Shown: positions 41,225 through 58,791 of the stretch, in pieces | Layout of the letters: every line of letters begins with the position of its first letter | Numbering within the stretch: position 1 is the first letter of the stretch | Source: Hyphomicrobiales bacterium | GTDB taxonomy: Bacteria; Pseudomonadota; Alphaproteobacteria; Parvibaculales; Parvibaculaceae | Assembly: GCA_016124805.1 (NCBI GenBank) | Contig: WGND01000011.1 | Location: 295,851-359,850, forward strand | Direction: 5' to 3' | DNA: 64,000 nt | The notes under the pieces: model-generated | What the model was told of the DNA's origin: nothing | Databases searched by the model: none | What the model saw: the letters and a program-made list of their open reading frames with translations, nothing else | Position numbers and translations under genes: made by a program

Positions 41225-42160
41225 GTGAGGGATATTTCACTGTCGGAAAAAACGGTTCTCTGTGTCGGGATCAATAATCTCGATATTGTCATTCGTCTTG
41301 ATTTGCAGGAGATCGCGCCCGACAGGAAGCTGCTTCTTCCAGCCCCCCGTCAGTTGATTGGTGGGCAATGCGTCAATGCCGCCACGACCATGGCGCGGCT
41401 CGGCCTTCGCATCAGCTATGTCGGCATGACGGGTGACGATGCGAATGCTGGTCTGGTTCGCGCTCATCTCAAATCCGAGGGCATTGACGACACCGCCTGT
41501 CAGACGGCCACAGGCATGCCCAACACAAGTGCCTTCATTCTGGTCGACCAGACGACGGGTGAACGCTGCATCCTTGTCACTGTCCCGGAGAATTATCCTG
41601 CACATAGCGGCGAGGTCGCAGAAAGCGTCTGGCAGGACTGCAGCTATGCCTATTTTGACGGAAATGAAATTGATGCCGCGCTGGTGATTGCAGGCGAAGC
41701 AAGGCGGCGCGAGATTGCGAGCCTGGCCGATGTCGAGGTCCTCAACGCCAAGAGCCTGCAATTGCTCAAGACGGTTGATACGGCGATTGTTCCGCGTGCT
41801 ATGGGAGAGGAACTCGCCGGCACATCAAAACACACCGATATGCTCGACGGTCTGCGTAAGCTCGGCTTGCGGCGCGGTGCCATCACACTGGGCCCGACAG
41901 GTGTCATCGGTTTTGATCAAAACCAGAACGAGCATTTCATTCCGGCTGAAAAAATCACGGCCGTCGATACCACCGGCGCGGGCGATGCCTTTCATGCGGG
42001 CTTTCTCTTTGCCGATATGAAGGGTGCCTCGTTCGAAGAGGCGCTGCGTTTCGCCTCAAAGACAGCCGCGCAGAAATGCCTCGTCCCGGGTCCAAGCCTC
42101 GGTCGCGACGTGCTTCAGGCGATGGCGACAGGCTTCAATGCATCACTTGAGGAACATTGA
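41225..42160 (+). CDS. PfkB family carbohydrate/nucleoside kinase
   Basis: A 311-residue ribokinase-type kinase. GGQCVNAATTMARLGLRISYVG is the first signature region, and the C-terminal signature DTTGAGDAFHAGFLFAD carries the catalytic Asp. Typical substrates are sugars or nucleosides; the exact one is not visible. GTG at 41225, preceded by GGGGG, is preferred over a TTG at 41210. Its last 18 bp overlap the 3' end of the convergent AraC-acetamidase fusion gene. Confidence 0.85.
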   Translation: MRDISLSEKTVLCVGINNLDIVIRLDLQEIAPDRKLLLPAPRQLIGGQCVNAATTMARLGLRISYVGMTGDDANAGLVRAHLKSEGIDDTACQTATGMPNTSAFILVDQTTGERCILVTVPENYPAHSGEVAESVWQDCSYAYFDGNEIDAALVIAGEARRREIASLADVEVLNAKSLQLLKTVDTAIVPRAMGEELAGTSKHTDMLDGLRKLGLRRGAITLGPTGVIGFDQNQNEHFIPAEKITAVDTTGAGDAFHAGFLFADMKGASFEEALRFASKTAAQKCLVPGPSLGRDVLQAMATGFNASLEEH

Positions 42161-44548
42161 TTTACGTATGACGGCGTGAACGCCCCAGTTGCCGTCGACA
42201 ACCTGTGTGATGCCGAAATCAATGGCCACCGACATGAGTGAGATTGCTTCATCTTCGGTGAGATGTCGCGTCGCCATCAGAAAGCGTCTTGTTTTCCGGA
42301 AGGCATCGCGCATCGCCATATCGATGGAAGACTGTTTGTAGACATCCGTCTGCGCGTTCTTGCCAAATTCCTTCAGATAGTTGGGATGGCTGAATCCAAG
42401 GATGACCCATTCATCTTCCGTTTCGATGAGCGGATAGTCGAGGTCATAGACCTGACCATCGAGGTCTTCCTTCTTGTGCAGAATGATTTCAAAGACACCT
42501 GTGAGCGAGCATTCGATGGCTGTGCCGCAAAGCTCGGAATCACCTTGCGAGGCATGGGGGTCACCAATGGACAGCAGGCCACCGGGCACCGCCACCGGCA
42601 GATAGATGCGCGAGCCTGCGCCCAGACGCCAGTTGTCGAGATTGCCGCCGAAATAGGCCGGCGGCACGGAATCCACAATGCCCCAATGATCCGGTGCCAG
42701 ACCGATGACGCCGAAATGGGGTCGCAGCGGAATTTCGATGTCCTTCAGCACATCGTAGTTTTTTTCGATCGTCGAATGGTCAACCGGCACACCAGGATAG
42801 TCGATCACCGGATGCACGACGCCATAAGGGTCGGTCTGTGGGGTCCAGCGGAAATTGTAAACTGCATGGGCGCAATGTTTGCCGTGCTGGGATTCAACTT
42901 CGTAGATTGTCACCACTTCACGCGGGGCAGGCGGGGTCAGCAATTCGCTATAGTGGAACCCCCACCATGTGGCGGCATTGCTGCCGAATGTACGGCCGGC
43001 ATATTCCCGACTGGCGGCAGGGCGGGGTGTGATGTCAAGGATGCGTAATTCCACCACATCGCCGGGCATGGCGCCCTCAATGGCAATCGGACCGGTGCAG
43101 ATATGCACACCAAAGCCTTCACCGGCACCGCGGCCATAGGTGGAGGCATCGAGCGGGCCCGCGCCACGGCGATCCACGTTCTTCTGATCCTTGGTCCAGT
43201 GAAAGACGCTTTCCGCACCTGGATCATCCTTGATCATGCGCTCATAATCGTCATAGGCGTGCTGGGTGAGGGTTTCGACGGTAACGAAGTCACCCGACTT
43301 CACCTCCAGCACAGGCGGCAGGAAACGGCTGAAATAGCCCCAATGCACGGTGCGCTGCGTGACGGGCAGAAAATGATGGGTCTTGCCTTCTTCCGACATG
43401 ACAAAGCTTTGCTGCTCATCCTGACCTGCCAGCGCATCAATTTTCTGGATCTCGGCCTCAAGCAGTTCGCCATCAGCGGTATTCATGCCGCGTGGCGAGG
43501 CACCGTCCATGTCACCGGGCCAGCTTGTCTCGCTTTCACGCGAGGCATTGGGATCGGTCGGCCGCCCGCGATTGATGAGCCATGGCCCTTCCTGCTCGGC
43601 ACTGATATTGGGCGACTTGCGGTATTCGCGCGGTGACACACCAAAATGCTCGCGAAAGGCGCGGCTGAAATAGGCCGCATCATTGAAGCCCCAGCGAAAG
43701 CAGATATCGGAAATGGAAAGCTGACCATGGACCGGGCTTTCCAGATCATAGCGACAGCGCTCCAAACGACGGAAGCGAATATAGCGGCCAAAGCTCTGGC
43801 CCACCGATTCAAAAAGCTTCTGCACATAGCGTGGCGAGATACCGTGCTCGTCGGCAACTTTCATGAGAGAGAGATCGGGATCGCTGAGCTGCAGCTCTAT
43901 CGACTGGCAGATGCGATGGAGCAGGGCGGCCCGCACACCGGCTGCGCCGCCGAGCGCGCGCGTATCGGCCTGACGGAAAAGCCCCGTGATGAGGAATTCA
44001 GGCAGGGCCATTTCAATCGGGCGGACCTGATCCACGCTCAGATCTTCCAGCGCTTCGGAGACCGAATTGAGAAAGCCACCCAGCACATGGCCGACGCCAG
44101 TGCGCCCTGAAAGATGAATGACATTTGTGGGCAGCGGGGTCAGCAGGCGCGGATTGAATGCCGAGCGCGGGATCTGGACGATGATCGCGCGGAAATTGCT
44201 GCGCATGATGAGGCGTGTGTCAACGCCCATGGCGCCATAGACAATATCACCGGCCTGAGCATCGAAATCACGCGCGCCATCGCGCACGGTCATCGCTCCC
44301 TCCAAGAGACAGGCAACCCAGACGCCGTCTGTCTTCTTGTTCTGAAGCGCTCCGATTTCCTGCGGGCCGGAGGTCAGGCGGGCAAAGGTGATACCAAGTG
44401 GGGATTCAATGCAGGAGACAATGCCGTAAAGGTCATCGGTCGGCTTGAGCGTGGGCGAGGCCAGCGACATGCGGCTGAGATATTCCCGCCATGCCGGCAC
44501 ACGCTGAACCTTGGGATAGGATTCGGTGGTGAAACGCCAAGCCTTCAT
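42143..44548 (-). CDS. AraC-family regulator fused to an acetamidase/formamidase
   Basis: A single 801-residue frame. Residues about 30-200 form an AraC-type ligand-binding domain. Residues 207-311 are a double helix-turn-helix (VADEHGISPRYVQKLFES; ISDICFRWGFNDAAYFSRAF; FGVSPREYRKS). A polar linker follows at about 312-385, then a complete FmdA/AmdA-type domain (388-801) with WGYFSRFLPPVLEVKSGD and the active-site motif GDPHASQGDSELCGTAIE at 662-679. Such amidases release ammonia from formamide or short amides. The regulator may sense the enzyme's substrate or product. An internal ATG at residue 355 or 384 has no convincing ribosome site, so one polypeptide is expected. It is last in a leftward catabolic gene set and is the only DNA-binding regulator recognised in the window. 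Confidence 0.85.
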   Translation of the reverse strand: MKAWRFTTESYPKVQRVPAWREYLSRMSLASPTLKPTDDLYGIVSCIESPLGITFARLTSGPQEIGALQNKKTDGVWVACLLEGAMTVRDGARDFDAQAGDIVYGAMGVDTRLIMRSNFRAIIVQIPRSAFNPRLLTPLPTNVIHLSGRTGVGHVLGGFLNSVSEALEDLSVDQVRPIEMALPEFLITGLFRQADTRALGGAAGVRAALLHRICQSIELQLSDPDLSLMKVADEHGISPRYVQKLFESVGQSFGRYIRFRRLERCRYDLESPVHGQLSISDICFRWGFNDAAYFSRAFREHFGVSPREYRKSPNISAEQEGPWLINRGRPTDPNASRESETSWPGDMDGASPRGMNTADGELLEAEIQKIDALAGQDEQQSFVMSEEGKTHHFLPVTQRTVHWGYFSRFLPPVLEVKSGDFVTVETLTQHAYDDYERMIKDDPGAESVFHWTKDQKNVDRRGAGPLDASTYGRGAGEGFGVHICTGPIAIEGAMPGDVVELRILDITPRPAASREYAGRTFGSNAATWWGFHYSELLTPPAPREVVTIYEVESQHGKHCAHAVYNFRWTPQTDPYGVVHPVIDYPGVPVDHSTIEKNYDVLKDIEIPLRPHFGVIGLAPDHWGIVDSVPPAYFGGNLDNWRLGAGSRIYLPVAVPGGLLSIGDPHASQGDSELCGTAIECSLTGVFEIILHKKEDLDGQVYDLDYPLIETEDEWVILGFSHPNYLKEFGKNAQTDVYKQSSIDMAMRDAFRKTRRFLMATRHLTEDEAISLMSVAIDFGITQVVDGNWGVHAVIRKSMFLK

Positions 44549-44817
44549 GAGCGGTCACATGGCTTGAAAGTCTTCGACGGCGTTGCCCCCATGTTCATCA
44601 GGGCATTTTGATTAAATAACAGGCAATCGCTCACACCATGAGCAAAATCATGGAGTCCACAGATCAGCGATTTTCCATTCAACAATTGAGGTAGCCTCAT
44701 AATTCAACAACGCACACTAAATGGAACACAGGCCTCACCCCTCCGTTATGGTGCGGTGCAAAAGATGTGCCGAAATACCCTTCAACTAAAAGCTGAAGAG
44801 ATGGGTGCAAAGTGAGG

Positions 44818-45894
44818 CTAGTCGAGCGGAAAAATGGTCCGGGGGATCTTCACATGAACGCCCTGACGGCCATCGACAACCTGCGTCACCGTGAAGTCCG
44901 CCGAAACACTCATGAGCGAATAGGCATCGTCTCGGGAGATGTTGCGGGACTCAGTCAGGAGTTTCAGCATGTCGAGCGAGGCGTTTTTCATGGCCACATT
45001 CAGGTCTTCGTCAAAGCCATGCACAATCCAGTAACCCGGCGACTCGAGCAATGGTGAGGGGAAGGTGAAATCCTTGCGCAGCACGATCTGGAAGAGAACA
45101 TCCAGCGACGCCTCAATGGCCGTGCCGCTGATTTCGCCATCGCCCTGCGACACATGCGGATCGCCGATGGAGAACAGTCCGCCGTCAACAGCCACGGGGT
45201 AATACATGGTCGAGCCGGCCCCGATGCGCCAATTGTCGATATTGCCGCCATGGGCGCCGGGCGGAATGGTGCTGACGCGGCCCTTTACGTCGGGGGCCAC
45301 GCCAGCCGTGCCCAGATGCGGGCGTACGGGCACACGTACGCCGTTCAGCGCCTTGTGGCGGTCGCATTCGGGACAGTTGGTGATTTTGCCCGGCGTCTCA
45401 TATCGACCGGGATAGTCATAGGCATAGACGGCTTCTGCCTGGTTGGAAGTCGCATCAATGCGGTAAATCGTGACGCGCTCCTTCTCGCCAAACTCCTTAT
45501 AGAGATGGCCCCAATTGGCCGCGAGATTGGACCCATAGGCAAAACGTGGGCTCATGCGCAGATAGCGAACCTCGAGCATGTCGCCGGGCTTGGCATCTTC
45601 GACATAGATCGGTCCGGTCATCAGATGCACGCCGGGATTACGGTCGGACTCAGGGATGGCGGCATAAAGGGCCTTCATCTCGTCATCCATCATCAGATCC
45701 GGTGCATCGCCCGCATGATGTGTCAGCGCTTCGGCCTGGATAAGATCGCCGCTTTTCACACGCAGCTTGGGCGCAAGTGCGGCATCGAAATATCCCCAAT
45801 GGCAGGTCTCCGGCGTCGCCTTGAGCACATGCAGGTTTTTCGGGGTGGAGGTTCGGTCAATCGAACTCAGCGTCAAAGTCTGTTTGTCTGTCAT
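44818..45894 (-). CDS. Acetamidase/formamidase family protein
   Basis: A 358-residue stand-alone enzyme of the FmdA/AmdA family, hydrolysing formamide or short amides to ammonia and acid. CHWGYFDAALAPKLRVKSGD and the signature GDPHVSQGDGEISGTAIE (244-261) are intact. It carries an insert CPECDRH at 174-180 with a CxxC that the fused paralogue lacks. The ATG at 45894 follows AAAGGGG; a GTG eight codons earlier is possible. It lies between the TRZ/ATZ-type amidohydrolase gene and the fused paralogue, 269 bp upstream of the latter. Confidence 0.9.
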   Translation of the reverse strand: MTDKQTLTLSSIDRTSTPKNLHVLKATPETCHWGYFDAALAPKLRVKSGDLIQAEALTHHAGDAPDLMMDDEMKALYAAIPESDRNPGVHLMTGPIYVEDAKPGDMLEVRYLRMSPRFAYGSNLAANWGHLYKEFGEKERVTIYRIDATSNQAEAVYAYDYPGRYETPGKITNCPECDRHKALNGVRVPVRPHLGTAGVAPDVKGRVSTIPPGAHGGNIDNWRIGAGSTMYYPVAVDGGLFSIGDPHVSQGDGEISGTAIEASLDVLFQIVLRKDFTFPSPLLESPGYWIVHGFDEDLNVAMKNASLDMLKLLTESRNISRDDAYSLMSVSADFTVTQVVDGRQGVHVKIPRTIFPLD

Positions 45895-46057
45895 CTGGAG
45901 CACCCCTTTGCAAATCACTCAATTAGAAACTCATCAGCGCGCCAAATGTCTTGCGGTCCGAAGGCTGCGGTAGGCTGAAGCTTAGGATCAAGCCTGTCCC
46001 GGCGTCTTGTCTTCTGGCGTACTAGATATTACGAATAATGAATCGTCCTTTTACGGA

Positions 46058-47455
46058 TCAGACAATAGGCCAGGCGCTGACGGCAGGCAGGCCCGAGCGC
46101 TTGACGATGGCCTCACCGGCGACTTGCGCGTCGGCATAAAGCTTTTCCTCGTCAATCATAGTGCTGTGATAATTATCTATCACCCGAACGCCGTTCACCC
46201 AGACGCTGTGCACACCGCGGCCATCGGCCGACCAGACCAGTTGATTGGCAACATTGTGAAGCGGGCGCCATTCAGGGCGGTCCGTGTCATGAAGGACAAA
46301 ATCAGCCTTCTTGCCGAGCTCGATGGACCCGATTTCCTGCTGTAGGCCCATAGCGCGGGCACCACCCAATGTCGCCATTTCCAGTGCCTGATAGGCGGAG
46401 AAGACATCCGGCCTGCCGCGGGCATCCTTAAAGAGACCCGCAACGAGATAGATCGTGCGCATCATTTCTGATGCATTGCCATTATTGTTGCCATCGGTGC
46501 CCAGCGTGATGTTCACGCCAGCCTCTGCCATTTCCGGGAACAGACCAACCGCCGTCGCACCATAGCCGCCTTTGAGGGCGGAGAGGGGGCAGTGGCAGAT
46601 ATTGGCGCCTGTTTCGGCAAGGAGTTTCACCTCGTTCATGTCAAGATGAACAGCATGGGTAAGTGAGACATTGTTCCCGAGGACGCCAAGCTCCGCCAGA
46701 TATTCTATCGGGCGCTTGCCCGTATTCTCCATGAACCAGTCCACATCGACCTGGGCCGGGCTCATATGGGCGGAGATGGCGCCACCATTGCTGTCTGCCA
46801 GCGCCTTGGCGGCAAGCCAGACCTCATCCGTCGCCGTCGAGTGGCCCACCAGAAGCGGCCAAGCGCGGATCAGAGGATCGTTGCCGTAATTGACCGCCAT
46901 CTCATCCTGAAGCTTCCGGATGGCAAGATCGGTTTTCTTCTTCTGATCTTCTGCCGGATCAAAAGCGCGGTCTTCAATCCAGGCGCCTATGCGACCGCGT
47001 ATGCCGAGCGTGTTCAGTCCCTCAGCCGTTGCCTGCATGTCGAGAATGGTGCCGGCTTCAAGAAAGCAGGTTGCACCGGAGCGCAACATTTCAAGTGCGG
47101 CGAGCCGGGCGGAGAGATATTCATCTTCAGGCGTCTGCGTCTGGTAGAGCGGAATAAGCCAGCGCCAGACATTTTCTTCAAAGCCCGTGTCATCGGGAAT
47201 ATAGCCGCGCGTCAGTGGTTCGCCGGTCACATGGATATGGCCATTGACAAAGCCCGGCGTCAGCACAAAGCGGCGACCGTCAATGACCTGTTTGGCCGTG
47301 GTGCCCTTTGGTAAGTCTGCGCTTTTGCCGACAAAGGAAATTCTGTCACTGGTCACGGCGACCGCTCCATCGGTAATGATGCGGCGCGTTTCATCCATGG
47401 AGACAATCAGAACATTCTTGATAAGCGTATCAACTTGCAGGGCGGGGCTGGTCAC
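46058..47455 (-). CDS. Amidohydrolase family protein (TRZ/ATZ-type deaminase/chlorohydrolase)
   Basis: A 465-residue metal-dependent amidohydrolase. The first metal motif is HIH in TPGFVNGHIHVTGEPLTRG; further ligands are seen as His in AHMSPAQVD and LTHAVHLD and Asp in LGTDGNNNG. This is the pattern of the ATZ/TRZ/cytosine-deaminase branch, which removes amino, alkylamino or halogen groups from N-heterocycles. It begins with GTG at 47455, 22 bp after the RutB-like gene. Position and family fit deamination of a ring intermediate; the substrate is unknown. Confidence 0.88.
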   Translation of the reverse strand: MTSPALQVDTLIKNVLIVSMDETRRIITDGAVAVTSDRISFVGKSADLPKGTTAKQVIDGRRFVLTPGFVNGHIHVTGEPLTRGYIPDDTGFEENVWRWLIPLYQTQTPEDEYLSARLAALEMLRSGATCFLEAGTILDMQATAEGLNTLGIRGRIGAWIEDRAFDPAEDQKKKTDLAIRKLQDEMAVNYGNDPLIRAWPLLVGHSTATDEVWLAAKALADSNGGAISAHMSPAQVDVDWFMENTGKRPIEYLAELGVLGNNVSLTHAVHLDMNEVKLLAETGANICHCPLSALKGGYGATAVGLFPEMAEAGVNITLGTDGNNNGNASEMMRTIYLVAGLFKDARGRPDVFSAYQALEMATLGGARAMGLQQEIGSIELGKKADFVLHDTDRPEWRPLHNVANQLVWSADGRGVHSVWVNGVRVIDNYHSTMIDEEKLYADAQVAGEAIVKRSGLPAVSAWPIV

Positions 47456-47477: not shown

Positions 47478-48149
47478 CTAGACGGGCTGCCAGCCTGCCA
47501 TGACGGATTGGGTATCGGTGAGCAGGGCGACATTTTTTGCCAGCCCGTTAAGCGCGCCCAGATGCAGGGCAGGCGTATAGGCGGCGCAGGAATCTGTCGC
47601 GATGAAGACATTGTAATTCCGGTGAAAGGCTTCGCGTGCCGTGCAGTCGACACAGCAATCCGTCGTGAAGCCGGTCATGATCAGCGTCTCAATGCCACGT
47701 GCCTTCAGGCGGTCATCAAGCTCCGTCCCGTGAAAACTCGAAAACAGGGTCTTCTCAATTTCCACGTCGCCGGGCTCAGGTCGCAGACCATAATAATCCG
47801 CACCCTTGCTATCCCTCCGGCAGGTCGCAATGGAGCCCTCGCCACGTCCCTTGCGCTGAGCCAGCGTCTTCAGCGCCGCCATGTCGGTTTCAGGCGAGGT
47901 GATGACCCGCGGCCAGACCAGCAGAACGCCCGCTTTGCGCGCGGCGGTCGCGAGCCTTTTGATATTTTCAAGCGCGGCATTGATCGGTGTGAAATCCATC
48001 CCGAACTGGCCCATGCGACCTTCAGGTGAAATGAAGTCCACCTGAAGGTCCACAAGCACGAGTGCTGTCGTTTCAGGCCTGATCATCGCCGGCAGCGAAG
48101 CCACCGGCACCAACGGATCAAGCGTGAAGGCGACATGCTGTTCAGGCAT
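47478..48149 (-). CDS. Isochorismatase-family cysteine hydrolase, RutB-like (ureidoacrylate amidohydrolase-like)
   Basis: A 223-residue cysteine hydrolase. The catalytic set is visible: Asp34 in VLVDLQVDF, Lys133 in EKTLFSSF, and Cys166 in TDCCVDCT. RutB uses the same triad to hydrolyse ureidoacrylate after RutA opens the uracil ring. Its start overlaps the stop of the RutA-like gene by 8 bp, giving a coupled RutA-RutB-like pair. RutC, RutD, RutE and RutG are absent, so the true substrate may differ from ureidoacrylate. A paralogue lies at 60398. Confidence 0.82.
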   Translation of the reverse strand: MPEQHVAFTLDPLVPVASLPAMIRPETTALVLVDLQVDFISPEGRMGQFGMDFTPINAALENIKRLATAARKAGVLLVWPRVITSPETDMAALKTLAQRKGRGEGSIATCRRDSKGADYYGLRPEPGDVEIEKTLFSSFHGTELDDRLKARGIETLIMTGFTTDCCVDCTAREAFHRNYNVFIATDSCAAYTPALHLGALNGLAKNVALLTDTQSVMAGWQPV

Positions 48150-49275
48150 TCTCGGCCACAACCGATTTTGACGGGAAGGCCGATTTGATTTTGGGCATGA
48201 TCTTGTCTGCAAAGACGGGAATGCCCGCATGATAGTCCGGGAAGATCAGCATCAGGCCATCAAGGTCACAATTGTCGATCAGGCTGATGCATTGATCCGC
48301 AAGGCTGTCGGGCGAACCCACGCGATGCGCCGACATGAAGGAGGAACGCGCCTTGCGTGTGAAATCATTTTCCTTGCCGATTTCACTGTCGAGGAAACCA
48401 TAAGCCCGCATCATGCCGTGCAGTGCTTCTTCGTCGAAACCACTGGCATAATATTCCGCCGTCTTCTGGGCTTCTTCATCGGTGTCGCCAATAACCAGAT
48501 TGAGCATGGTGTAGGTCTTGATGGTGCGACCTGCATCACGCGCCATCTGCTTGGCCATGTTGCTGTTTTCCTTTAGCTCGTTCTCATCGCCGCCGGAGAG
48601 GAAGATGGCGTCCATCTGCTCAACCGTGAACTGCATGCCTTTCTTGGATGTGCCTGCGCAGACCAGGAAAGGATGGGGATCGGCCACCGGCTTGTGATCT
48701 GACTGGCAATCATCCATCTGGAAATATTTGCCGTCATAAGTGACGGAGGGTTCGGACCAGAGACGCTTGATGATATCGACCCATTCCGTGGCGAGGTCAT
48801 AGCGCTGGTCATGATTGACGTCGGCGCGCCAGGCGCCCATCTGCTCGAACTCACCCTTGTAGGAACCGGTGACGACATTGAGACCCGCGCGGCCATTGCT
48901 GATCTGGTCGATGGTGGAGATCATCTTGGCGGTCACGGCCGGGTTCTGAAGCAGGGTGTGGACGGTGGCCCAGACCTGAACATTTTCTGTTGCCTCTGCA
49001 AGCGCGGCAATCAGGATCTGGGAATCAACCGAGTGCTGCCAATGTTCGCGGGGGCCACCAAAGCCACGCCATTTTGCCATGGCCATAATGAAATCGAGCC
49101 CATGCTGGTCCGCGAGCATGGCCGCTTTCTTGTTATAGGCGTATGAACCGTCAATTTCCGGCGCCTTGTCGGAGAGGATCCAGCCGCCATTGGCGATCGG
49201 CAGGAAAATGCCGAGATCTTTGCCACCAGTGTCGGAAGGAAGAACGCGTTTAACTTTGTTCAATGGGTTTACCAT
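48142..49275 (-). CDS. Flavin-dependent monooxygenase of the bacterial luciferase family, RutA-like
   Basis: A 377-residue LLM-class monooxygenase. GIFLPIANGGWILSDKAP, MAKWRGFGGPREHW and NVVTGSYKGEFEQMGAW align with the equivalent stretches of pyrimidine monooxygenase RutA, which cleaves the uracil N3-C4 amide bond with a flavin peroxide. The overlap with the downstream RutB-like gene strengthens this reading. A flavin reductase able to supply reduced FMN is encoded at 62469. Sulfone monooxygenases share the fold, so an organosulfur substrate cannot be ruled out. The start MVNPLNKV lies 92 bp after the extradiol dioxygenase gene. Confidence 0.82.
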   Translation of the reverse strand: MVNPLNKVKRVLPSDTGGKDLGIFLPIANGGWILSDKAPEIDGSYAYNKKAAMLADQHGLDFIMAMAKWRGFGGPREHWQHSVDSQILIAALAEATENVQVWATVHTLLQNPAVTAKMISTIDQISNGRAGLNVVTGSYKGEFEQMGAWRADVNHDQRYDLATEWVDIIKRLWSEPSVTYDGKYFQMDDCQSDHKPVADPHPFLVCAGTSKKGMQFTVEQMDAIFLSGGDENELKENSNMAKQMARDAGRTIKTYTMLNLVIGDTDEEAQKTAEYYASGFDEEALHGMMRAYGFLDSEIGKENDFTRKARSSFMSAHRVGSPDSLADQCISLIDNCDLDGLMLIFPDYHAGIPVFADKIMPKIKSAFPSKSVVAENA

Positions 49276-49367: not shown

Positions 49368-50159
49368 TCAGGCGGCATCCAGAATGACGGTTGTCATGTC
49401 CAGAGAGCCAAATTCAATCGTGCTTGTTTCAAATCGTGCGGTGTCGCCCGGCAGGCGCGCGCCCAGCACATAAAGAAGGGGCAGAAAATGATCAGGTGAA
49501 GGCACTGCAAGCTGTGCATCCTCGCCCGGCGACAGATAGCCGATCACATTTTCCGGCTTGTCCGTTTCAATGGCGTTGCGGATATATCCGGCATAGCGCT
49601 GCGCCCAGTCATAGCCGCCGGGCGGCAGGCGCCAATCCATAATGCCAAGATTGTGCACAATATTGCCGCTGCCAATGATCAGCACGCCTTCGTCACGGAA
49701 GGCGGCCAGCTTCTGGCCGACTTCATAGTGAAATTTGGGCGGCTGGGTGGCGTCCATGCTGATCTGGATGACCGGCACGTCGGCATCGGGATAGGCGACC
49801 TTCAGGATTGCCCAGGTGCCGTGATCCAGACCCCATGAATCATCAAGCGTCACCTCAAGCGGCGCCAACTTTTCCTGCACCTCGCGGGCAAGCTTTGCAT
49901 CGCCGGGTGCCGGATAGCGCATCTCATACATCGCCTGAGGAAAACCATTAAAGTCATGGATGGTCTTCGGGTGATCCATGGCGGTAACGCGGATGCCGCG
50001 TGTATACCAATGCGCCGAGATGCAGATGATGGCGCGCGGCTTGCCGATCTCGCGGCCCATCTCCGCCCAGCGGCGCGTATATTGATTATCTTCCATCACA
50101 TTGCCGGGGCTGCCATGGCCCCAGAAGATGACAGGCATGCGGGTGGGCTTATCGGGCAT
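49368..50159 (-). CDS. LigB-superfamily extradiol dioxygenase (DODA/YgiD-type)
   Basis: A 263-residue class III extradiol dioxygenase-like enzyme. Candidate iron ligands are His15 (FWGHGSP) and His50 (ISAHWYT), with His113 in GLDHGTWAIL as the usual acid-base residue and a further His near 169. Relatives open the ring of catechol-type compounds such as DOPA. The ATG at 50159 is used; a GTG directly before it is an alternative. It follows the Rieske oxygenase gene by 30 bp, so ring hydroxylation followed by ring opening is a reasonable inference. Confidence 0.85.
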   Translation of the reverse strand: MPDKPTRMPVIFWGHGSPGNVMEDNQYTRRWAEMGREIGKPRAIICISAHWYTRGIRVTAMDHPKTIHDFNGFPQAMYEMRYPAPGDAKLAREVQEKLAPLEVTLDDSWGLDHGTWAILKVAYPDADVPVIQISMDATQPPKFHYEVGQKLAAFRDEGVLIIGSGNIVHNLGIMDWRLPPGGYDWAQRYAGYIRNAIETDKPENVIGYLSPGEDAQLAVPSPDHFLPLLYVLGARLPGDTARFETSTIEFGSLDMTTVILDAA

Positions 50160-50189
50160 CACGAAAGCCCATGTCAGACAGTTGCAACA

Positions 50190-51410
50190 TCACTCCACCA
50201 TACGCAATGGCGGATGACCTGACTTTGATGTCGGGCCTTTCATGTTTTCCCATGCCTTCTGATAGCGCGCCACCAGCCAGTTGTTCAAATCGGTCTGGGC
50301 GCGCTCCTGCCACGAATAGCGCCCGCGAATGGCAAAGCGCGAATTGAGGCCGACCTGTACCAGTTCATCGACATGCAGATCCTGTTCGGTGATTTCCATG
50401 GCTGCGGTCATGTTCATGTCAAGACGCTCCTGGAAGAGCGGCTCTTTCATGGCACCCGGCGCCACCAGAATGCCGATAGTCATGGAATGCCGACCGGCGC
50501 TTTCGGCATGGAGGATCAGATAGATCACCATGTCGCTTGTGAGCACGAGAGAAAGCGTCGGAGGGATATTGGCAAAGGCAGCGCGATTGCGGTCTTCATC
50601 CGTCAATTTCGGGAAGACCGGCAATACCGCTTTCTGCAGCGCGTTGAAGGCGGCGTCCTTGTGCAAGGTTCCGTTGAAGCGCAGATAGCCGGCGCTGTTT
50701 TCGGGCACATCTGGAAAGCTTGCCAACTCGCTTGGAATAAAGTCATGCAAGGGACCCTTGTGCAGGCGCGTCGCATGATAGCCGTCATTGTTGTTTTCCA
50801 TCATCACTTTCCAGTTCCATGGATAGCTTGATGGGGCGTCGGGCAATGGCCCTTCCGCATTGCCAAGATCGTAATTGGCAAGGGCTGTGGAGACGGATTC
50901 CAGACGCGGCGCAAGCGGGGCAGCCTCGGCGTCAAAATTGATGAAGATGAAACCCAGCCAGACTTCGGTCTTGATTTCAGGCAGACGGATGTCGTCGCGG
51001 CTGAATTCGCAGGTATCCCCCATGGCCGGGGCGCCGATCAGGCGACCGTCCAGCGCATAGGTCCAGTGGTGATAAGGGCAAACGAAAGATTTTGCCGTGC
51101 CTCGACCTTCCGCCACCAGCATGGCGCGATGCTGGCAGACGGCCGACATGGCTTTCAGCTCATTCGTCTTTGTCCGGGCAATGATGAGCGGCTCACCAAT
51201 ATGGGTCACTGTGAAATAGTCGCCGGGCTCCTTCACCCAGTCTTCGCGACCCACGCAGAGCCATTCATGATTGAAGAGAGCTTCCTTTTCAAACTCGAAG
51301 AATTCTTCGTTGGTGTAGCAGGCGGGCGGCAGCGTTTCAGCCTTGGCGGTCTCCAGTGTGGAGGTGCTCAGGCTCTTAAAAAATTCATCGTTGAAGGTAA
51401 AGTTTTTCAT
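50190..51410 (-). CDS. Rieske-type aromatic ring-hydroxylating oxygenase, alpha subunit
   Basis: A 406-residue oxygenase alpha subunit. The Rieske cluster ligands are Cys92, His94, Cys111 and His114 (VCQHRAM; VCPYHHW). The mononuclear iron site has NNNDGYHATRLH, with the bridging Asp209 and ligands His212 and His217. It adds oxygen to an aromatic or N-methylated substrate, or removes N-methyl groups. No beta subunit, ferredoxin or reductase gene is in the window, so it probably is an alpha-only enzyme using electron carriers encoded elsewhere. Confidence 0.9.
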   Translation of the reverse strand: MKNFTFNDEFFKSLSTSTLETAKAETLPPACYTNEEFFEFEKEALFNHEWLCVGREDWVKEPGDYFTVTHIGEPLIIARTKTNELKAMSAVCQHRAMLVAEGRGTAKSFVCPYHHWTYALDGRLIGAPAMGDTCEFSRDDIRLPEIKTEVWLGFIFINFDAEAAPLAPRLESVSTALANYDLGNAEGPLPDAPSSYPWNWKVMMENNNDGYHATRLHKGPLHDFIPSELASFPDVPENSAGYLRFNGTLHKDAAFNALQKAVLPVFPKLTDEDRNRAAFANIPPTLSLVLTSDMVIYLILHAESAGRHSMTIGILVAPGAMKEPLFQERLDMNMTAAMEITEQDLHVDELVQVGLNSRFAIRGRYSWQERAQTDLNNWLVARYQKAWENMKGPTSKSGHPPLRMVE

Positions 51411-51616: not shown

Positions 51617-52912
51617 TCATGTCGCGTTGATCTCGGTCGCCACGCCATCTCGCAGACCGTTATAGGGCGGCAGTGTCCAGAGGAGAATCGCCCCGATCAT
51701 GAGGGCAATACCAATGGCAATCACGGCCAGGTCATAGCTCCCGGTTACATCGAAAACGGTATCCATGAGAAAGGGTGTGAAGCCGAGTGTCAGGACGATT
51801 GTGCCGTATATGGTGCCCAGAATCACCCCATAGGCCTTGAGCCCGAAATAGCGGGAGGTGAAGTAGGGCAGCACGCCATATTCGGTGCCGAGGCCAATGC
51901 CCATGAGGCCGCCAGCCAGAAGCAGCAAGGGAAATGACTCCGTGCTGACAAAGAGGATGAGGCCCGCCAGAGCGGCCAGAAAGAAGGGCACGGCGAGGCG
52001 CGGTGTCTGCACTCGGTCCAGCAGGAAACCGATCACAATCTGCCAGACCACGGTGACAAGGGCAAAGATGACAAGAACCTGTGTGGCGGCTCCCGGCGTG
52101 TAGCCACGGTCGATCAACATGGACACGACGTGGGTGAAAAGGGCGGTCATGCAACCGGCGCCCAGCGCAATGGCAAGAAGTATTTTCCAGAAGGTCGCCG
52201 TTTTGCGCGCTTCGGAAAATGAATGGCTGACGTCTTCCGCGCTGATGCCACCGGCCATGTCACCATCCGGCGTTACCGGATCGCGCAGCAGTGCATACAT
52301 CAGCGGAAAGCCAATGATGAGCGTGACAAGCCCGAGACCGGCATAGGCGCCGCGCCAGCCATATTCGAGGATCATGGCCTGCGCCACAGCCGGCATGACG
52401 GTCGCGCCCATGCCATTGCCGAGCCCCGCCGAGAGACCAAGAGCGGCGCCGCGCGATGTCACAAACCAGCCCGCGACGATCTTGTTGAACAGCACCGTGC
52501 TTGGAATGGCTGCGGTCAGGCCGACAAGCGCAAAGAGGGCATAGAAAAGGATGAGGCTGCCATTGTTGAAATAGAGCAGGGCAAGAGCCGCCGCGAAGAG
52601 CACGTTACCCATCAGGACAATCTTGCGAGGACCATAGAGATCTGCCAGCCGCCCGATCAGCGGATAAAACAGAAAGCCGACAATGGCCACGATGCCCAGC
52701 ACCGCCGAGACACTTGAACGCGGCCAGTTGAATTCCTCGGATATGGGCAGCAGGAAAACGCCAAAGGCGGAATTCACCATGGGTGTGGCGCTGACGAAGT
52801 TGCCAATGGCACAGCCAATCACAACGCCGGTCGCGGGTTTCATCAGGCGCTTCAGCATCACTTCTACCCCCAGTTGCCACCAGAAGAGGCTAGGCGGGAA
52901 CGCGCGGGGCAT
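51617..52912 (-). CDS. MFS transporter of the catabolic cluster
   Basis: A 431-residue, 12-helix major facilitator. GRLADLYGPRKIVLMGN is the signature loop between helices 2 and 3. It resembles the monocarboxylate/OFA-type branch and the two other MFS proteins in the window. The ATG at 52912 has AGGG 7 bp upstream; an in-frame ATG at 52858 gives the shorter start MLKRLMKP and is a real alternative. It is the first gene of the leftward catabolic set and divergent from a TauD-type gene, so substrate or intermediate uptake is likely. Confidence 0.85.
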   Translation of the reverse strand: MPRAFPPSLFWWQLGVEVMLKRLMKPATGVVIGCAIGNFVSATPMVNSAFGVFLLPISEEFNWPRSSVSAVLGIVAIVGFLFYPLIGRLADLYGPRKIVLMGNVLFAAALALLYFNNGSLILFYALFALVGLTAAIPSTVLFNKIVAGWFVTSRGAALGLSAGLGNGMGATVMPAVAQAMILEYGWRGAYAGLGLVTLIIGFPLMYALLRDPVTPDGDMAGGISAEDVSHSFSEARKTATFWKILLAIALGAGCMTALFTHVVSMLIDRGYTPGAATQVLVIFALVTVVWQIVIGFLLDRVQTPRLAVPFFLAALAGLILFVSTESFPLLLLAGGLMGIGLGTEYGVLPYFTSRYFGLKAYGVILGTIYGTIVLTLGFTPFLMDTVFDVTGSYDLAVIAIGIALMIGAILLWTLPPYNGLRDGVATEINAT

Positions 52913-55706: not shown

Positions 55707-56301
55707 GATCACATGCCACATTACTGATTGATGGTGAAGCTGATCCTAGATGCAATAGCTTCCGGCTTCTTGGACCACTGCGCCAGTTCATTTGCCCGTC
55801 TAATATACGAACGCAAATGCATCTGCGTATGTTTGAAGCGCATCGCCAAACATTGTTGCAGAGGGTTGCCTCTTATTTCACCTCTTCGGCCTGGTGAGGC
55901 AGGCGCATCCTGTTTGCCTGACCAACGGCTTCAACTCAAACTTGTCGGGAGACGCATAGGCTTTTGGATTTGACAGCCAGATCGTGTCTTTCGAGATGCT
56001 GTTTCAAAAAAATATATATTTTGGTTTGCTGGAGAAAATGGGAGCCGTTGCAGACACGCACACATTCTTGACTATTTCCCCCGGTGGCCCTTTTGCGATG
56101 TTCATTGGCTATGCATTTCCCCCGCAAGCGTGACAAAACGTCATTATTCGACACCTAAAAATTGCACATCGCATTGCGTCAATGCCCATTCATGCAGTGA
56201 TAACAATGTGTTAACCCTCTGGCATAGCTCTTGCTGCTGCAGTGCACAGTACGTGCCGACATAGCCGTTCACCTGGGCGCTATGTAAAAAGGGGGTTACC
56301 A
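55707..56301. other. Divergent intergenic region, 595 bp
   Basis: No convincing gene lies here. The region is AT-richer than its surroundings. It holds a perfect 14-bp palindrome AAAATATATATTTT at 56009-56022, an inverted repeat GCATTG-CGT-CAATGC at 56171-56185, and a sigma-54-type promoter at 56220-56235. It should carry the promoters for the leftward TauD-SDR unit and the rightward TonB-receptor gene set. The palindromes are possible sites for an activator or for DNA bending; no consensus was matched. Confidence 0.6.
56220..56235 (+). promoter_or_regulatory. Sigma-54 (-24/-12) promoter of the TonB-receptor gene
   Basis: TGGCAT-AGCTC-TTGCT, preceded by C, matches the RpoN consensus TGGCAC-N5-TTGCW, with GG and GC at exactly the required 12-bp offset. 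Transcription would start near 56246 and give a leader of about 55 bases before the ATG at 56302. Sigma-54 promoters need an enhancer-binding activator; in the rut system that is NtrC under nitrogen limitation. No activator gene is in the window. Confidence 0.72.
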
Positions 56302-58791
56302 ATGCATAAACTAGTGAGGTTGCCTTTTGTTGCAGCGATCCTTTTCTGCCCGCTCTCCATGAATGGAGTGCTGGCTGAGGAGGCAGTGAAGCCGATTGTT
56401 GTGGCAGACGCCACGGAGCCGGTCGCGACAGAAGGATCAGACGGAGCGACGGAGCCGACAGCCGTCGAATATGCCGATGAAGTCGTCGTGACATCCGACC
56501 GGGCCGGGTTGCTTGAAAAAGAACCGACCGATCTTCTCTTCGGCATCAACAAGCCGCTGCTCGAAACACCGCGCGCCGCGACTTTCATGAACGAAGAAAC
56601 AATCCAGCAATATGGCATCGAGACAGTGGATGATCTCAAGGCCGTGTCGCCCGGCACATCGACCGCAAGTTTCTATGGCGTCTCCGGTGCCGTGAATATC
56701 CGCGGTACGCTGGCTGAAACCTATTTCCGCGGCTTCAAGCGCATTGAGAATCGCGGCACCTATGAGACACCGCTCGGCGCTGCCTCGCGTGTCGACATTG
56801 TACGTGGCCCGCCCACAACCAATTTCGGCGCCGGCAAGGTCGGTGGCTTCCTGAACTTCCAGCCCAAATCCGCCAAGCTGGATGACGGCACGTTCATCGG
56901 TCAGGTTACCGGCGAGGTCAATGGCACCGTCGGGTCCTATGGCAAGAAGAACGGCTCCGGCGAGATCGGTGTGCCGATCACCATCGGTAGCGCCGTTGGT
57001 GGTGTCTATCTTTATGGCGAGCTGGAAGACTCAGACAGCTTCTATCGCGGCATTCACCCCGAACACCAGATGCTGCAGGCGTCCACTGCTTTCGACTTTG
57101 ACAGCGGTTGGTCACTTGAGTTCGGCGGCATGTATTACCATTCCGACGGCTATGTTCAGACGCCGGGCTGGAACCGCGTGACGCAGGACCTGATTGATAA
57201 CGGGACCTACATTACCGGCCAGGATACAACCATCGTCGATACAGACGGCAATGGCCGCCTGACGCAGGACGAACTCGGGGGTGCCTTCGCACCCATCACG
57301 GCCTATCTGGTGGCTCCCGGCTTCACCATCTATGGTCCTGATGCGCGCTGGACACTTGATACAGGTGTCGGCACGGCTCATCTTGATCGCCGGACGGTCT
57401 ATATCAGCGATGCTGATTTCTCCGAGACCTATACGGGCACGGGCTATGCCAGCATGTCCAAAGAACTGAATGACGGCTCCAAAATCAAGCTCGAAGCCTT
57501 CTATGACATGCTCAATAATGACCGCTTCGTGAGCTATGGTTATCCGGCCACCTATAATTCCTGGGTGACGGAAGGTCGTGCGACCTATGACTTCGATTTC
57601 GAAGCCAAGTTCGCGCCGATCAAATTTGCCAACAGCGTCGGCCTTTCCAGCCGTTACTATGATGCCAGCTCCAAGGAAAGCTTCAACTCCGGCTTCATTG
57701 CTCTTGATCGTCGTGACCTGACGGTTGGCGCGACGGCAACCGACATCATCGACAGTCCGTTTTCGATCGACGACGTTGGCGGCTTCCTTTGGGAAAATGA
57801 TGTCACCACAAAATGGAGTGACTCCGGCATCTTCGGTGTCAGCGACATGATCTTCTTCGATCTGGTCGACGTCACGCTCGGTGCCCGTTACGACTACTAC
57901 ACTGTCGATACGGTTGATCGTGGCAGCTACTGCTTCTGCGCAACCAATGTGAAGTCCAAAGCAACGGACGGTAAGTTCACCTATAACGCCAGCATCATGC
58001 TGCTGACGCCTTGGGGCATTCGTCCTTACTATACCTATGCCGAAACATCTGCTGTGGAAGTCGGCCAGGCGGGTGAAGTTTCTCCCAGCCTCGTATCAAG
58101 CGACAACTGGATCTCTGATGGCAGCCTCAATGAAGCTGGTATCAAGTTCGAACTGCTGAAGGGCACGCTGACGGGTTCGCTCTCCGCTTACGAACAGGCT
58201 CGTACGCGTCTCGACCCTGTCACGAACTCAATATCGGCCACACTTGGTCGTGGTATCGAGCTGGAAATGCGTTATCTGGCGACTGACAATCTGAGCTTTA
58301 CCTTTGCCGGCAACTCTCAGCGCACAATGATCAAGGGACCCGATACGTCCTACTACATCATCCGTGCATCAGATGTCGGTCTCAATCCTGCGGATTATTA
58401 TGGTGGTGCGTTTGCTGTCTTCGGCGTCAGCTCCGTTTCCACACTTAACCGTGGAGCAGACTACAAGGATGGCACCATTCCGGAATCCGTGTTGAGCCTC
58501 TATGGCAACTACATCACGGATGAGCATGTCTGGGGTCAGGCTGGCTTCACGGCTGGTGTTGTCTACACAACCGAGACATCCGGCAAGCTCTACAACACGG
58601 TAAAATATCCGGCCTATACACTCGTCAATGCATCGACCTTCTACACCAAGGGTGACATCACCATTGGCCTGAATGTCGACAACATCTTTGACGAAACCTA
58701 CTTCACGCCGCTGGCAGATCTCTATTCCGACGCGGGCGTGCTGCCCGGCAAGGGTCGCGAATGGCGTCTGACGGCCAAGTTCAAGTTCTAA
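56302..58791 (+). CDS. TonB-dependent outer-membrane receptor
   Basis: An 829-residue receptor with a signal peptide (LVRLPFVAAILFCPLSMNGVLA), a TonB-box-like stretch DEVVVTS, a plug domain with VNIRGTLAETYFRGF and RVDIVRGPPTT, and a beta-barrel ending in the expected C-terminal Phe (LTAKFKF). The barrel part contains an EF-hand-type loop DTDGNGRLTQDE at residues 313-324, probably in an extracellular loop. It takes up a large or scarce ligand; siderophore-receptor-like features do not prove iron uptake. ATG 56302 has GGGGG upstream. Sigma-54 promoter in front; MFS, amidohydrolase and TonB/ExbB genes follow on the same strand. Confidence 0.9.
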   Translation: MHKLVRLPFVAAILFCPLSMNGVLAEEAVKPIVVADATEPVATEGSDGATEPTAVEYADEVVVTSDRAGLLEKEPTDLLFGINKPLLETPRAATFMNEETIQQYGIETVDDLKAVSPGTSTASFYGVSGAVNIRGTLAETYFRGFKRIENRGTYETPLGAASRVDIVRGPPTTNFGAGKVGGFLNFQPKSAKLDDGTFIGQVTGEVNGTVGSYGKKNGSGEIGVPITIGSAVGGVYLYGELEDSDSFYRGIHPEHQMLQASTAFDFDSGWSLEFGGMYYHSDGYVQTPGWNRVTQDLIDNGTYITGQDTTIVDTDGNGRLTQDELGGAFAPITAYLVAPGFTIYGPDARWTLDTGVGTAHLDRRTVYISDADFSETYTGTGYASMSKELNDGSKIKLEAFYDMLNNDRFVSYGYPATYNSWVTEGRATYDFDFEAKFAPIKFANSVGLSSRYYDASSKESFNSGFIALDRRDLTVGATATDIIDSPFSIDDVGGFLWENDVTTKWSDSGIFGVSDMIFFDLVDVTLGARYDYYTVDTVDRGSYCFCATNVKSKATDGKFTYNASIMLLTPWGIRPYYTYAETSAVEVGQAGEVSPSLVSSDNWISDGSLNEAGIKFELLKGTLTGSLSAYEQARTRLDPVTNSISATLGRGIELEMRYLATDNLSFTFAGNSQRTMIKGPDTSYYIIRASDVGLNPADYYGGAFAVFGVSSVSTLNRGADYKDGTIPESVLSLYGNYITDEHVWGQAGFTAGVVYTTETSGKLYNTVKYPAYTLVNASTFYTKGDITIGLNVDNIFDETYFTPLADLYSDAGVLPGKGREWRLTAKFKF

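What the first reader, a model, noticed from the sequence alone, without database searches (positions are those of the whole stretch)
42143..44548. Transcription factor fused to a metabolic enzyme: AraC regulator plus acetamidase/formamidase
One 801-residue frame joins a full AraC-type ligand-binding and double-HTH module to an apparently complete FmdA/AmdA amidase domain, with motifs on both sides and a 75-residue linker. AraC proteins normally stand alone. A regulator carrying its own substrate-degrading amidase could measure or reset its inducer directly, either as an enzyme that gates transcription or as one that destroys its signal. A stand-alone amidase paralogue lies next door, so the fused copy may have shifted to sensing.
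Basis: partly seen in the sequence, partly recalled or inferred. Interest (0 to 1): 0.78.

Follow-up and report, generated by a model that had tools for sequence, protein, structure and literature searches.

The report
Gene switch fused to amidase enzyme
One bacterial gene encodes a DNA-binding switch protein joined to a complete-looking amidase-type enzyme domain, a pairing found in dozens of species, mostly near a second amidase gene; it likely turns on genes for getting nitrogen from amides, with the enzyme half predicted to act as its sensor.

Summary
Window 42143-44548(-) is one 801-residue frame: AraC-type sensor fold, double HTH, about 75-residue linker, complete-looking FmdA/AmdA-type amidase domain. 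It is no frameshift: all 120 listed protein hits share the architecture, and it recurs in a single-contig genome and complete plasmids. The fused amidase domains form one group (SH-aLRT 98); their closest solved relative is 3b9t (62% identical), not the neighbour enzyme (37%).

New here. (1) In 65 of 73 fusion loci the fetched stretch also holds a free amidase, of two unlike types (24 class A, 41 class B, never both), with at least 5 type switches. (2) A sigma-54-type motif precedes 37 of 72 fusion genes (shuffles: mean 0.9) but none of 70 free-amidase genes. (3) A dyad, GCACAA-N4-TTGTGC, mostly precedes amidase, transporter and related genes (48 of 53 sites). (4) The amidase half is the most conserved part and keeps the acidic and histidine residues of the free enzymes.

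Best reading: a nitrogen-starvation AraC activator whose amidase domain likely reads the substrate. The wiring is inferred from sequence; gating by the amidase is untested. New variant of a known kind.

The parts
42143..44548 (-). fusion gene: AraC-type regulator (residues 1-314) + linker (about 315-389) + FmdA/AmdA-type amidase domain (about 390-801)
43607..43936 (-). double helix-turn-helix DNA-binding module (about residues 205-314)
43382..43606 (-). linker, low-confidence in the model, with RGxP at residues 327-330 (R, G and P in 72 of 72 aligned fusions)
42146..43381 (-). amidase domain, 62% identical to solved structure 3b9t; keeps the acidic and His residues invariant in the free enzymes
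44757..44772 (-). sigma-54-type -24/-12 element CGGCACATCTTTTGCA, 10 of 11 consensus positions, starting 224 bp before the fusion's ATG
   Evidence: aligned block in six other Parvibaculum loci, which score 8 to 10 of 11
44818..45918 (-). free class A amidase (FmdA_AmdA), immediately upstream of the fusion
46000..46033 (-). non-coding block upstream of the free amidase, partly conserved among Parvibaculum loci; candidate operator region, not a clear copy of the GCACAA-N4-TTGTGC dyad
   Evidence: alignment; dyad scans
46058..47455 (-). amidohydrolase (deaminase-like)
47478..48230 (-). isochorismatase-type hydrolase; nearest models BiuH and RutB, far below their cut-offs
48142..49275 (-). flavin-dependent LLM monooxygenase; nearest model RutA (264 bits, cut-off 498)
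49368..50162 (-). LigB-type extradiol dioxygenase (over the cut-off of the 4,5-DOPA-extradiol-dioxygenase model)
50190..51410 (-). Rieske ring-hydroxylating oxygenase alpha subunit
51617..52912 (-). MFS transporter
56220..56235 (+). second sigma-54-type element TGGCATAGCTCTTGCT (10 of 11), in front of the TonB receptor gene; a strict element also precedes the receptor's homologue in 7 Parvibaculum loci, but not in five other genomes' receptors (scores 7 or less, or no candidate)
56242..58791 (+). TonB-dependent receptor of the same cluster

Best explanation
This gene encodes one 801-residue protein in which an AraC-type DNA-binding regulator is joined to a complete-looking FmdA/AmdA-type amidase domain, and it likely works as a nitrogen-starvation activator: it is predicted to be made from a sigma-54 promoter, predicted to bind an operator before partner amidase, transporter or ring-cleavage genes, and would be switched on when its own amidase domain meets its amide substrate. 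SHOWN by sequence: the fusion, the grouping of all fused amidase domains together, the retained residues, the nearby free amidase in most loci, the sigma-54-type motif, and a shared dyad GCACAA-N4-TTGTGC in 38 of 80 loci. INFERRED: that the motif is a working promoter, that an NtrC-type protein drives it, that the AraC half binds the dyad, that the window uses a diverged form of it, and that the amidase is active. LEAST CERTAIN: that substrate engagement or turnover in the amidase domain, rather than in the AraC cupin alone, sets the regulatory output (a 'trigger enzyme').
For: (a) Fusion real and conserved. (b) It goes with amidases: 65 of 73 fusion loci hold a free amidase in the fetched stretch, 24 class A and 41 class B, never both, although A is only about 37% identical to the fused domain; at least 5 partner switches on the fusion tree. 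In the genus, 10 of 27 genomes have the fusion and all 10 have class A just upstream; none of the other 17 shows a class A hit in the listing. (c) Amidase half intact and constrained: 81 columns at least 95% invariant and alike in 72 fused, 29 A and 42 B, including H430, D433, D638, D663, H665, D670, E672, E679; mean pairwise identity amidase 75%, HTH 61%, N-terminal sensor 39% (600 random pairs); in the same loci fused and free amidases are nearly equally conserved (76.5 against 79.0% with B, 75.2 against 75.4% with A). (d) Sigma-54: at least 10 of 11 matches upstream of 37 of 72 fusions (20 shuffles: mean 0.9, max 4), 0 of 28 class A and 0 of 42 class B genes; the block stands out in alignments; one rpoN and four strong sigma-54 activators in the own genome; same motif before the TonB receptor in the window and 7 Parvibaculum loci. 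NtrC-like dyad with at most 1 mismatch in 20 of 72 fusion upstreams (30 shuffles: mean 1.5, max 4). (e) Operator: 53 sites in 38 of 80 loci, 48 of them before a cluster gene, against 3 in one shuffle; a related dyad lies 125 bp before the Rieske gene in both Asticcacaulis loci, one with stand-alone AraC and one with the fusion.
Against: No experiment. Loci are related, so shuffles overstate significance. Class B genes lie inside transporter operons and their upstream is largely coding, so they are a weak control for the promoter motif. Half the fusions (35 of 72) miss the 10-of-11 mark, and scores are only 5-7 before five rhizobial, Hyphomicrobiales or Novosphingobium plasmid fusions (L114-L118), so that wiring is not universal. 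The NtrC-like dyad is not enriched at 3 mismatches (57 of 72 against mean 50.8) and none was found before the window or six Parvibaculum fusions. The window has no clear copy of the operator dyad: near the free amidase the best has 4 mismatches, while a 2-mismatch match at 38853 lies inside another gene; 42 of 80 loci have no site at 2 mismatches or fewer. Eight of 73 fusion loci show no full free amidase, some cut by contig ends. The N-terminal sensor keeps its fold and could be the only ligand site. Nothing shows communication between the halves (pTM 0.55); the substrate is unknown.
Confidence: 0.45

Rival explanations
1. Inducer-destroying regulator: the AraC cupin senses the amide, and the tethered active amidase would hydrolyse it at the regulator, setting a threshold and shutting the system off when the amide runs out.
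Against: A free amidase nearby (65 of 73 loci) could already deplete the inducer, so the tether looks redundant for bulk removal; the sensor is the least conserved folded part.
Confidence: 0.22
2. Bifunctional protein without cross-talk: an ordinary amidase and an ordinary AraC activator share one chain so that both appear together under nitrogen starvation.
For: Long, variable linker (48-87 residues in 72 fusions), low-confidence in the model, suits independent domains.
Against: A free amidase is there already in most loci; R, G and P of a linker RGxP are kept in 72 of 72; fused-specific D626 in 72 of 72 against S or T in 71 of 71 free enzymes.
Confidence: 0.22
3. Dead-enzyme sensor, as in regulators that borrowed an enzyme fold: the amidase domain binds but does not cut.
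For: Position 429 is H in 71 of 71 free enzymes but Q in 64 of 72 fused ones; fused-specific D626.
Against: Acidic and His residues shared by the free enzymes are kept; 429 is A in 2f4l, the only distant solved member whose alignment reaches it, and Q/H changes at least 5 times among fusions; conservation is close to that of the free enzymes.
Confidence: 0.09
4. Assembly or frameshift artefact, or a product made as two polypeptides.
For: None beyond internal Met codons in the window's linker.
Against: Same frame in 72 of 73 fusion ORFs (L068 is broken), in a single-contig genome and plasmid records; at most 2 of 72 share a Met in any linker column.
Confidence: 0.02

Closest known systems
3b9t, predicted acetamidase/formamidase of Methylobacillus flagellatus (solved structure)
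   Different: Free and, by its name 'Twin-arginine translocation pathway signal protein', exported; no DNA-binding half.
Stand-alone AraC relatives (L073, L081, L082, L083, L120)
   Same: 38-46% identical to the AraC half, in similar clusters: class A amidase beside L082's, LLM + isochorismatase + MFS beside L120's.
   Different: No amidase domain and no RGxP tail; they form one group (SH-aLRT 89) whose place as ancestor or as one loss is unresolved.
MocR/GabR regulators (GntR HTH + aminotransferase-like sensory domain; PMC5320631, start of abstract seen)
   Same: Works alike in principle: HTH regulator fused to an enzyme fold.
   Different: Other HTH and enzyme families; the enzyme-like half is described there as sensory.
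PutA, proline dehydrogenase with DNA-binding domain (recalled)
   Same: Enzyme that regulates its own pathway.
   Different: Repressor with RHH domain; here AraC type and likely activator.
Ada and DJ-1/PfpI-type AraC regulators (recalled)
   Same: AraC HTH fused to an enzyme or enzyme-like domain, so the general kind is known.
   Different: Other enzyme families and functions.
NAC, sigma-54-made LysR regulator of nitrogen genes (recalled)
   Same: Predicted wiring: a sigma-54 promoter makes a regulator of other operons under nitrogen limitation.
   Different: LysR type without enzyme domain.

Membership tests
AraC/XylS regulators | C-terminal-type double HTH | tested here: met
   HTH_18 81.9 bits over 33.6; HTH_AraC 57.9 over 26.6
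AraC/XylS regulators | N-terminal cupin-type ligand domain | tested here: met
FeaR equivalog | NCBIfam NF007243 cut-off 199 | tested here: not met
   107.3 bits
FmdA_AmdA family | Pfam PF03069 over cut-off, residues conserved in free members present | tested here: met
   99 bits over 27; residues
FmdA_AmdA family | amide hydrolysis | not testable with these tools
   needs an assay
Formamidase FmdA equivalog | NCBIfam NF045496 cut-off 500 | tested here: not met
   60.1 bits for the fusion, 67.2 for the free enzyme: substrate need not be formamide
Trigger enzymes (PutA-like) | catalysis or substrate binding alters DNA-linked regulation | not testable with these tools
   no biochemical data
MocR/GabR | GntR HTH plus aminotransferase domain | tested here: not met
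   Pfam lists four families for the protein, neither of these among them
sigma-54-dependent gene (NAC-like wiring) | -24/-12 promoter element before the gene | tested here: met
   10 of 11 in the window; 37 of 72 loci at 10 or more; promoter function itself untested
sigma-54-dependent gene (NAC-like wiring) | NtrC-type enhancer | tested here: inconclusive
   20 of 72 loci at 1 mismatch or fewer, none in the window or six Parvibaculum loci

The most novel reading that the evidence does not exclude
A widespread, undescribed class of catalytic transcription activators: under nitrogen starvation, sigma-54 makes an AraC protein whose working amidase domain reads the amide by turning it over and, through the linker with its RGxP motif, licenses the AraC half to open transporter and amidase operons, with interchangeable partner amidases.
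Probability: 0.3. Interest if true: 0.78.

Novelty: new variant of a known kind. Interest (0 to 1): 0.6.

Why it matters
If the amidase half gates the AraC half, this is a natural single-protein link between catalysis and transcription, found in Parvibaculum, Burkholderiales and gammaproteobacteria (loci), with predicted promoter, operator and point mutants that make the question directly testable. It also suggests a nitrogen-scavenging role for genes that the records name only 'acetamidase/formamidase family protein' or 'AraC family transcriptional regulator', labels that each hide one half.

Tried and rejected
Frameshift artefact: rejected. Recent duplication of the neighbour amidase: rejected by identity and tree. 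Dead amidase: not supported by residue conservation, though H429Q and D626 were noted. AT-hook in the linker: the window's RGRP looked like one, but across 72 fusions position 329 is L 34, R 19, W 15 and others, so only RGxP is kept; dropped. Internal start for a separate amidase: at most 2 of 72 share a Met in any linker column (GTG and TTG starts were not tested). NtrC-like dyad: enriched at 1 mismatch, none in Parvibaculum. A TGCACAWATTT block upstream of Parvibaculum fusions: at 1 mismatch or fewer before the fusion in L005-L008, L014 and L031, not in L009 or L059, and in the window only a 2-mismatch match that overlaps the sigma-54-type element; role unknown. Sigma-54 before TonB receptors outside Parvibaculum: not found in five. 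Ancestry of the stand-alone AraC genes: unresolved. A first linker script had too narrow a pattern (12 of 73 measured) and was replaced. Literature: searches found no paper; some searches gave listings (15, 3, 3, 2, 2, and 8 of 6,493) in which I saw no title or abstract start on an AraC-amidase fusion; terms were few, and most subscription journals are not held. PMC10781810 and PMC13296017 were seen as passages only; neither describes the fusion. Catalytic residues of the family were not found in a paper; they are named from conservation.

Rows dropped: L068 (broken frame) left out of fusion alignments and trees (72 kept of 73); genes with 200 or fewer upstream bases left out of the promoter count (72 of 73 fusions, 28 of 29 class A, 42 of 42 class B, 4 of 4 AraC kept); of 9 'other' amidase rows the 7 over 250 aa went into the amidase tree.
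Full report

THE FUSION IS A FAMILY. All 120 listed protein hits, the window's own included, are fusions (of 2351 hits; only 7998 candidates were scored). A scan of genome contigs gave 119 relatives, of which the best 80 were fetched: Parvibaculum, Alteromonadaceae, Paraburkholderia, Caballeronia, Variovorax, Oxalobacteraceae, Halopseudomonas and others. Of the 80 loci, 71 hold an intact fusion ORF and L068 a broken one; three matches run off a contig end (L014, L055, L059), L079 is cut, and four loci (L073, L081, L082, L083) have a stand-alone AraC gene. Sixteen plasmid records hold a place covering at least 80% of the query. In the own genus, 10 of 27 genomes (own included) have the fusion, two of them cut or split at contig ends. 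The 72 fused amidase domains lie together on one side of a branch (SH-aLRT 98) next to the class B free enzymes, which are not themselves one group; class A is far off. Five stand-alone AraC relatives form one group (89), root unresolved.

PARTNERS. With the window, 73 sources have a fusion ORF; in 65 the fetched stretch also holds a free amidase, 24 of class A (the window's type) and 41 of class B (about 60% identical to the fused domain), never both; 8 hold none, one of these with a truncated class A piece at the contig end. The partner type changes at least 5 times on the fusion tree. The own genome has no FmdA_AmdA match outside these two genes. Class A occurs in two settings: in Parvibaculum, Alteromonadaceae and Asticcacaulis loci with some of Rieske oxygenase, LigB dioxygenase, LLM monooxygenase, isochorismatase, TauD, MFS and TonB genes; in Paraburkholderia and Caballeronia with a deacetylase-like gene and an amino-acid-type ABC transporter. 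Class B clusters carry the family-3 solute-binding protein and permease-ATPase; a RidA-type gene occurs in 22 loci. The stand-alone AraC gene on P. graminis plasmid pPHS1_P lies beside LLM, isochorismatase, flavin reductase and MFS genes. These gene kinds fit nitrogen recovery from amide or ureide compounds (inference); the substrate is not known, and NCBIfam cut-offs for RutA, RutB, BiuH and formamidase are not met.

AMIDASE HALF. Eighty-one columns are at least 95% invariant and alike in 72 fused, 29 class A and 42 class B enzymes, including H430, D433, D638, D663, H665, D670, E672 and E679. Mean pairwise identity among fusions is 75% in the amidase, 61% in the HTH and 39% in the sensor. Within the same loci fused and free amidases are nearly equally conserved; the fused one is the more conserved in 334 of 820 pairs with B and 125 of 253 with A. 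Differences: 429 is Q in 64 and H in 8 of 72 fusions against H in 71 of 71 free enzymes; 626 is D in 72 of 72 against S or T in 71 of 71. The linker is 48-87 residues long and keeps R, G and P of RGxP in 72 of 72.

SIGMA-54. An alignment of Parvibaculum upstream regions showed a GGCAC-N5-TTGC-like block. A scan for TGGCAC-N5-TTGCW (recalled consensus) found at least 10 of 11 matches before 37 of 72 fusions (20 dinucleotide shuffles: mean 0.9, max 4), 0 of 28 class A genes, 0 of 42 class B genes and 1 of 4 stand-alone AraC genes. Class B genes sit in operons with largely coding upstream, so their zero is a weak control. The block stands out from diverged surroundings in Burkholderiales groups. 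In the window it is CGGCACATCTTTTGCA at 44757-44772(-); six other Parvibaculum loci score 8 to 10 at the like place. With at most 1 mismatch the whole window has three such sites: this one, one inside a gene (46777) and one at 56220-56235(+) before the TonB receptor; strict elements precede the receptor's homologues in 7 Parvibaculum loci, not in five other genomes. The genome has one rpoN and four strong sigma-54 activators. An NtrC-like dyad (recalled consensus) with at most 1 mismatch occurs before 20 of 72 fusions (shuffles mean 1.5, max 4), 2 of 28 class A and 2 of 42 class B genes; at 3 mismatches there is no excess (57 against mean 50.8), and none was seen in Parvibaculum. Against: five plasmid fusions (L114-L118) score 5-7 of 11 only.

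OPERATOR. Upstream of class A genes in Paraburkholderia and Caballeronia a block around GCACAAGCTTTTGTACGC is conserved in 8 of 8 aligned. A pattern made from it, RCACAAG-N3-TTGTGCGC, has 53 sites at 2 mismatches or fewer in 38 of 80 loci; 48 lie before a cluster gene: solute-binding protein 20, deacetylase-like 11, free A 10, TauD 2, free B 2, one each of permease-ATPase, fusion and Rieske. One shuffle gave 3; 30 permuted patterns on every fourth locus gave a mean of 1.3 and a maximum of 6 against 11. The pattern was derived from some of these sites, and loci are related, so the count is not a probability. A related dyad lies 125 bp before the Rieske gene in both Asticcacaulis loci, one with the AraC alone and one with the fusion, which points to the AraC half as its reader. 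The window itself has no clear copy in a fitting place.

MECHANISM. Taken together: sigma-54, likely with NtrC in some lineages, makes the fusion when nitrogen is short; the AraC half likely activates the partner operons at the dyad; the amidase half, intact-looking and the most conserved part although a free amidase is mostly at hand, likely serves recognition of the amide rather than bulk hydrolysis. Whether it reports substrate (trigger enzyme) or removes inducer cannot be told from sequence. I put trigger enzyme first because the AraC sensor is the fastest-changing folded part while the amidase is the slowest, and because fused-specific residues exist.

VERDICT. A real, widespread fusion that the searches did not find described; ordinary in its parts, new in its combination and wiring; new variant of a known kind.

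Noticed in passing
window 56220-56235 and 56242-58791: TonB receptor with its own sigma-54-type element; the same in 7 Parvibaculum loci, so part of the cluster may be one sigma-54 regulon.
   Followed up: partly
window 46000-46033: Partly conserved non-coding block before the free amidase in Parvibaculum, unlike the Burkholderiales dyad; possibly a diverged operator.
   Followed up: partly
window 45939-45956(-): Weak dyad-like sequence (4 mismatches) just upstream of the free amidase.
   Followed up: no
window 44818-45918: The first start codon is GTG, but the ATG at residue 9 may be the true start of the free amidase.
   Followed up: no
L068:9157-11531: Fusion gene broken into two ORFs in a draft genome; not mended.
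   Followed up: no
L005-L008, L014, L031 upstream of the fusion: TGCACAWATTT-like block between the sigma-54-type element and the start codon; role unknown.
   Followed up: partly
L120:6001-12746: Plasmid cluster with stand-alone AraC, LLM monooxygenase, cysteine hydrolase, flavin reductase and MFS: a Rut-like set with the unfused regulator.
   Followed up: partly
PDB 2wkn: Called FORMAMIDASE in one listing and gamma lactamase from Delftia acidovorans in another: family members may cut cyclic amides.
   Followed up: no
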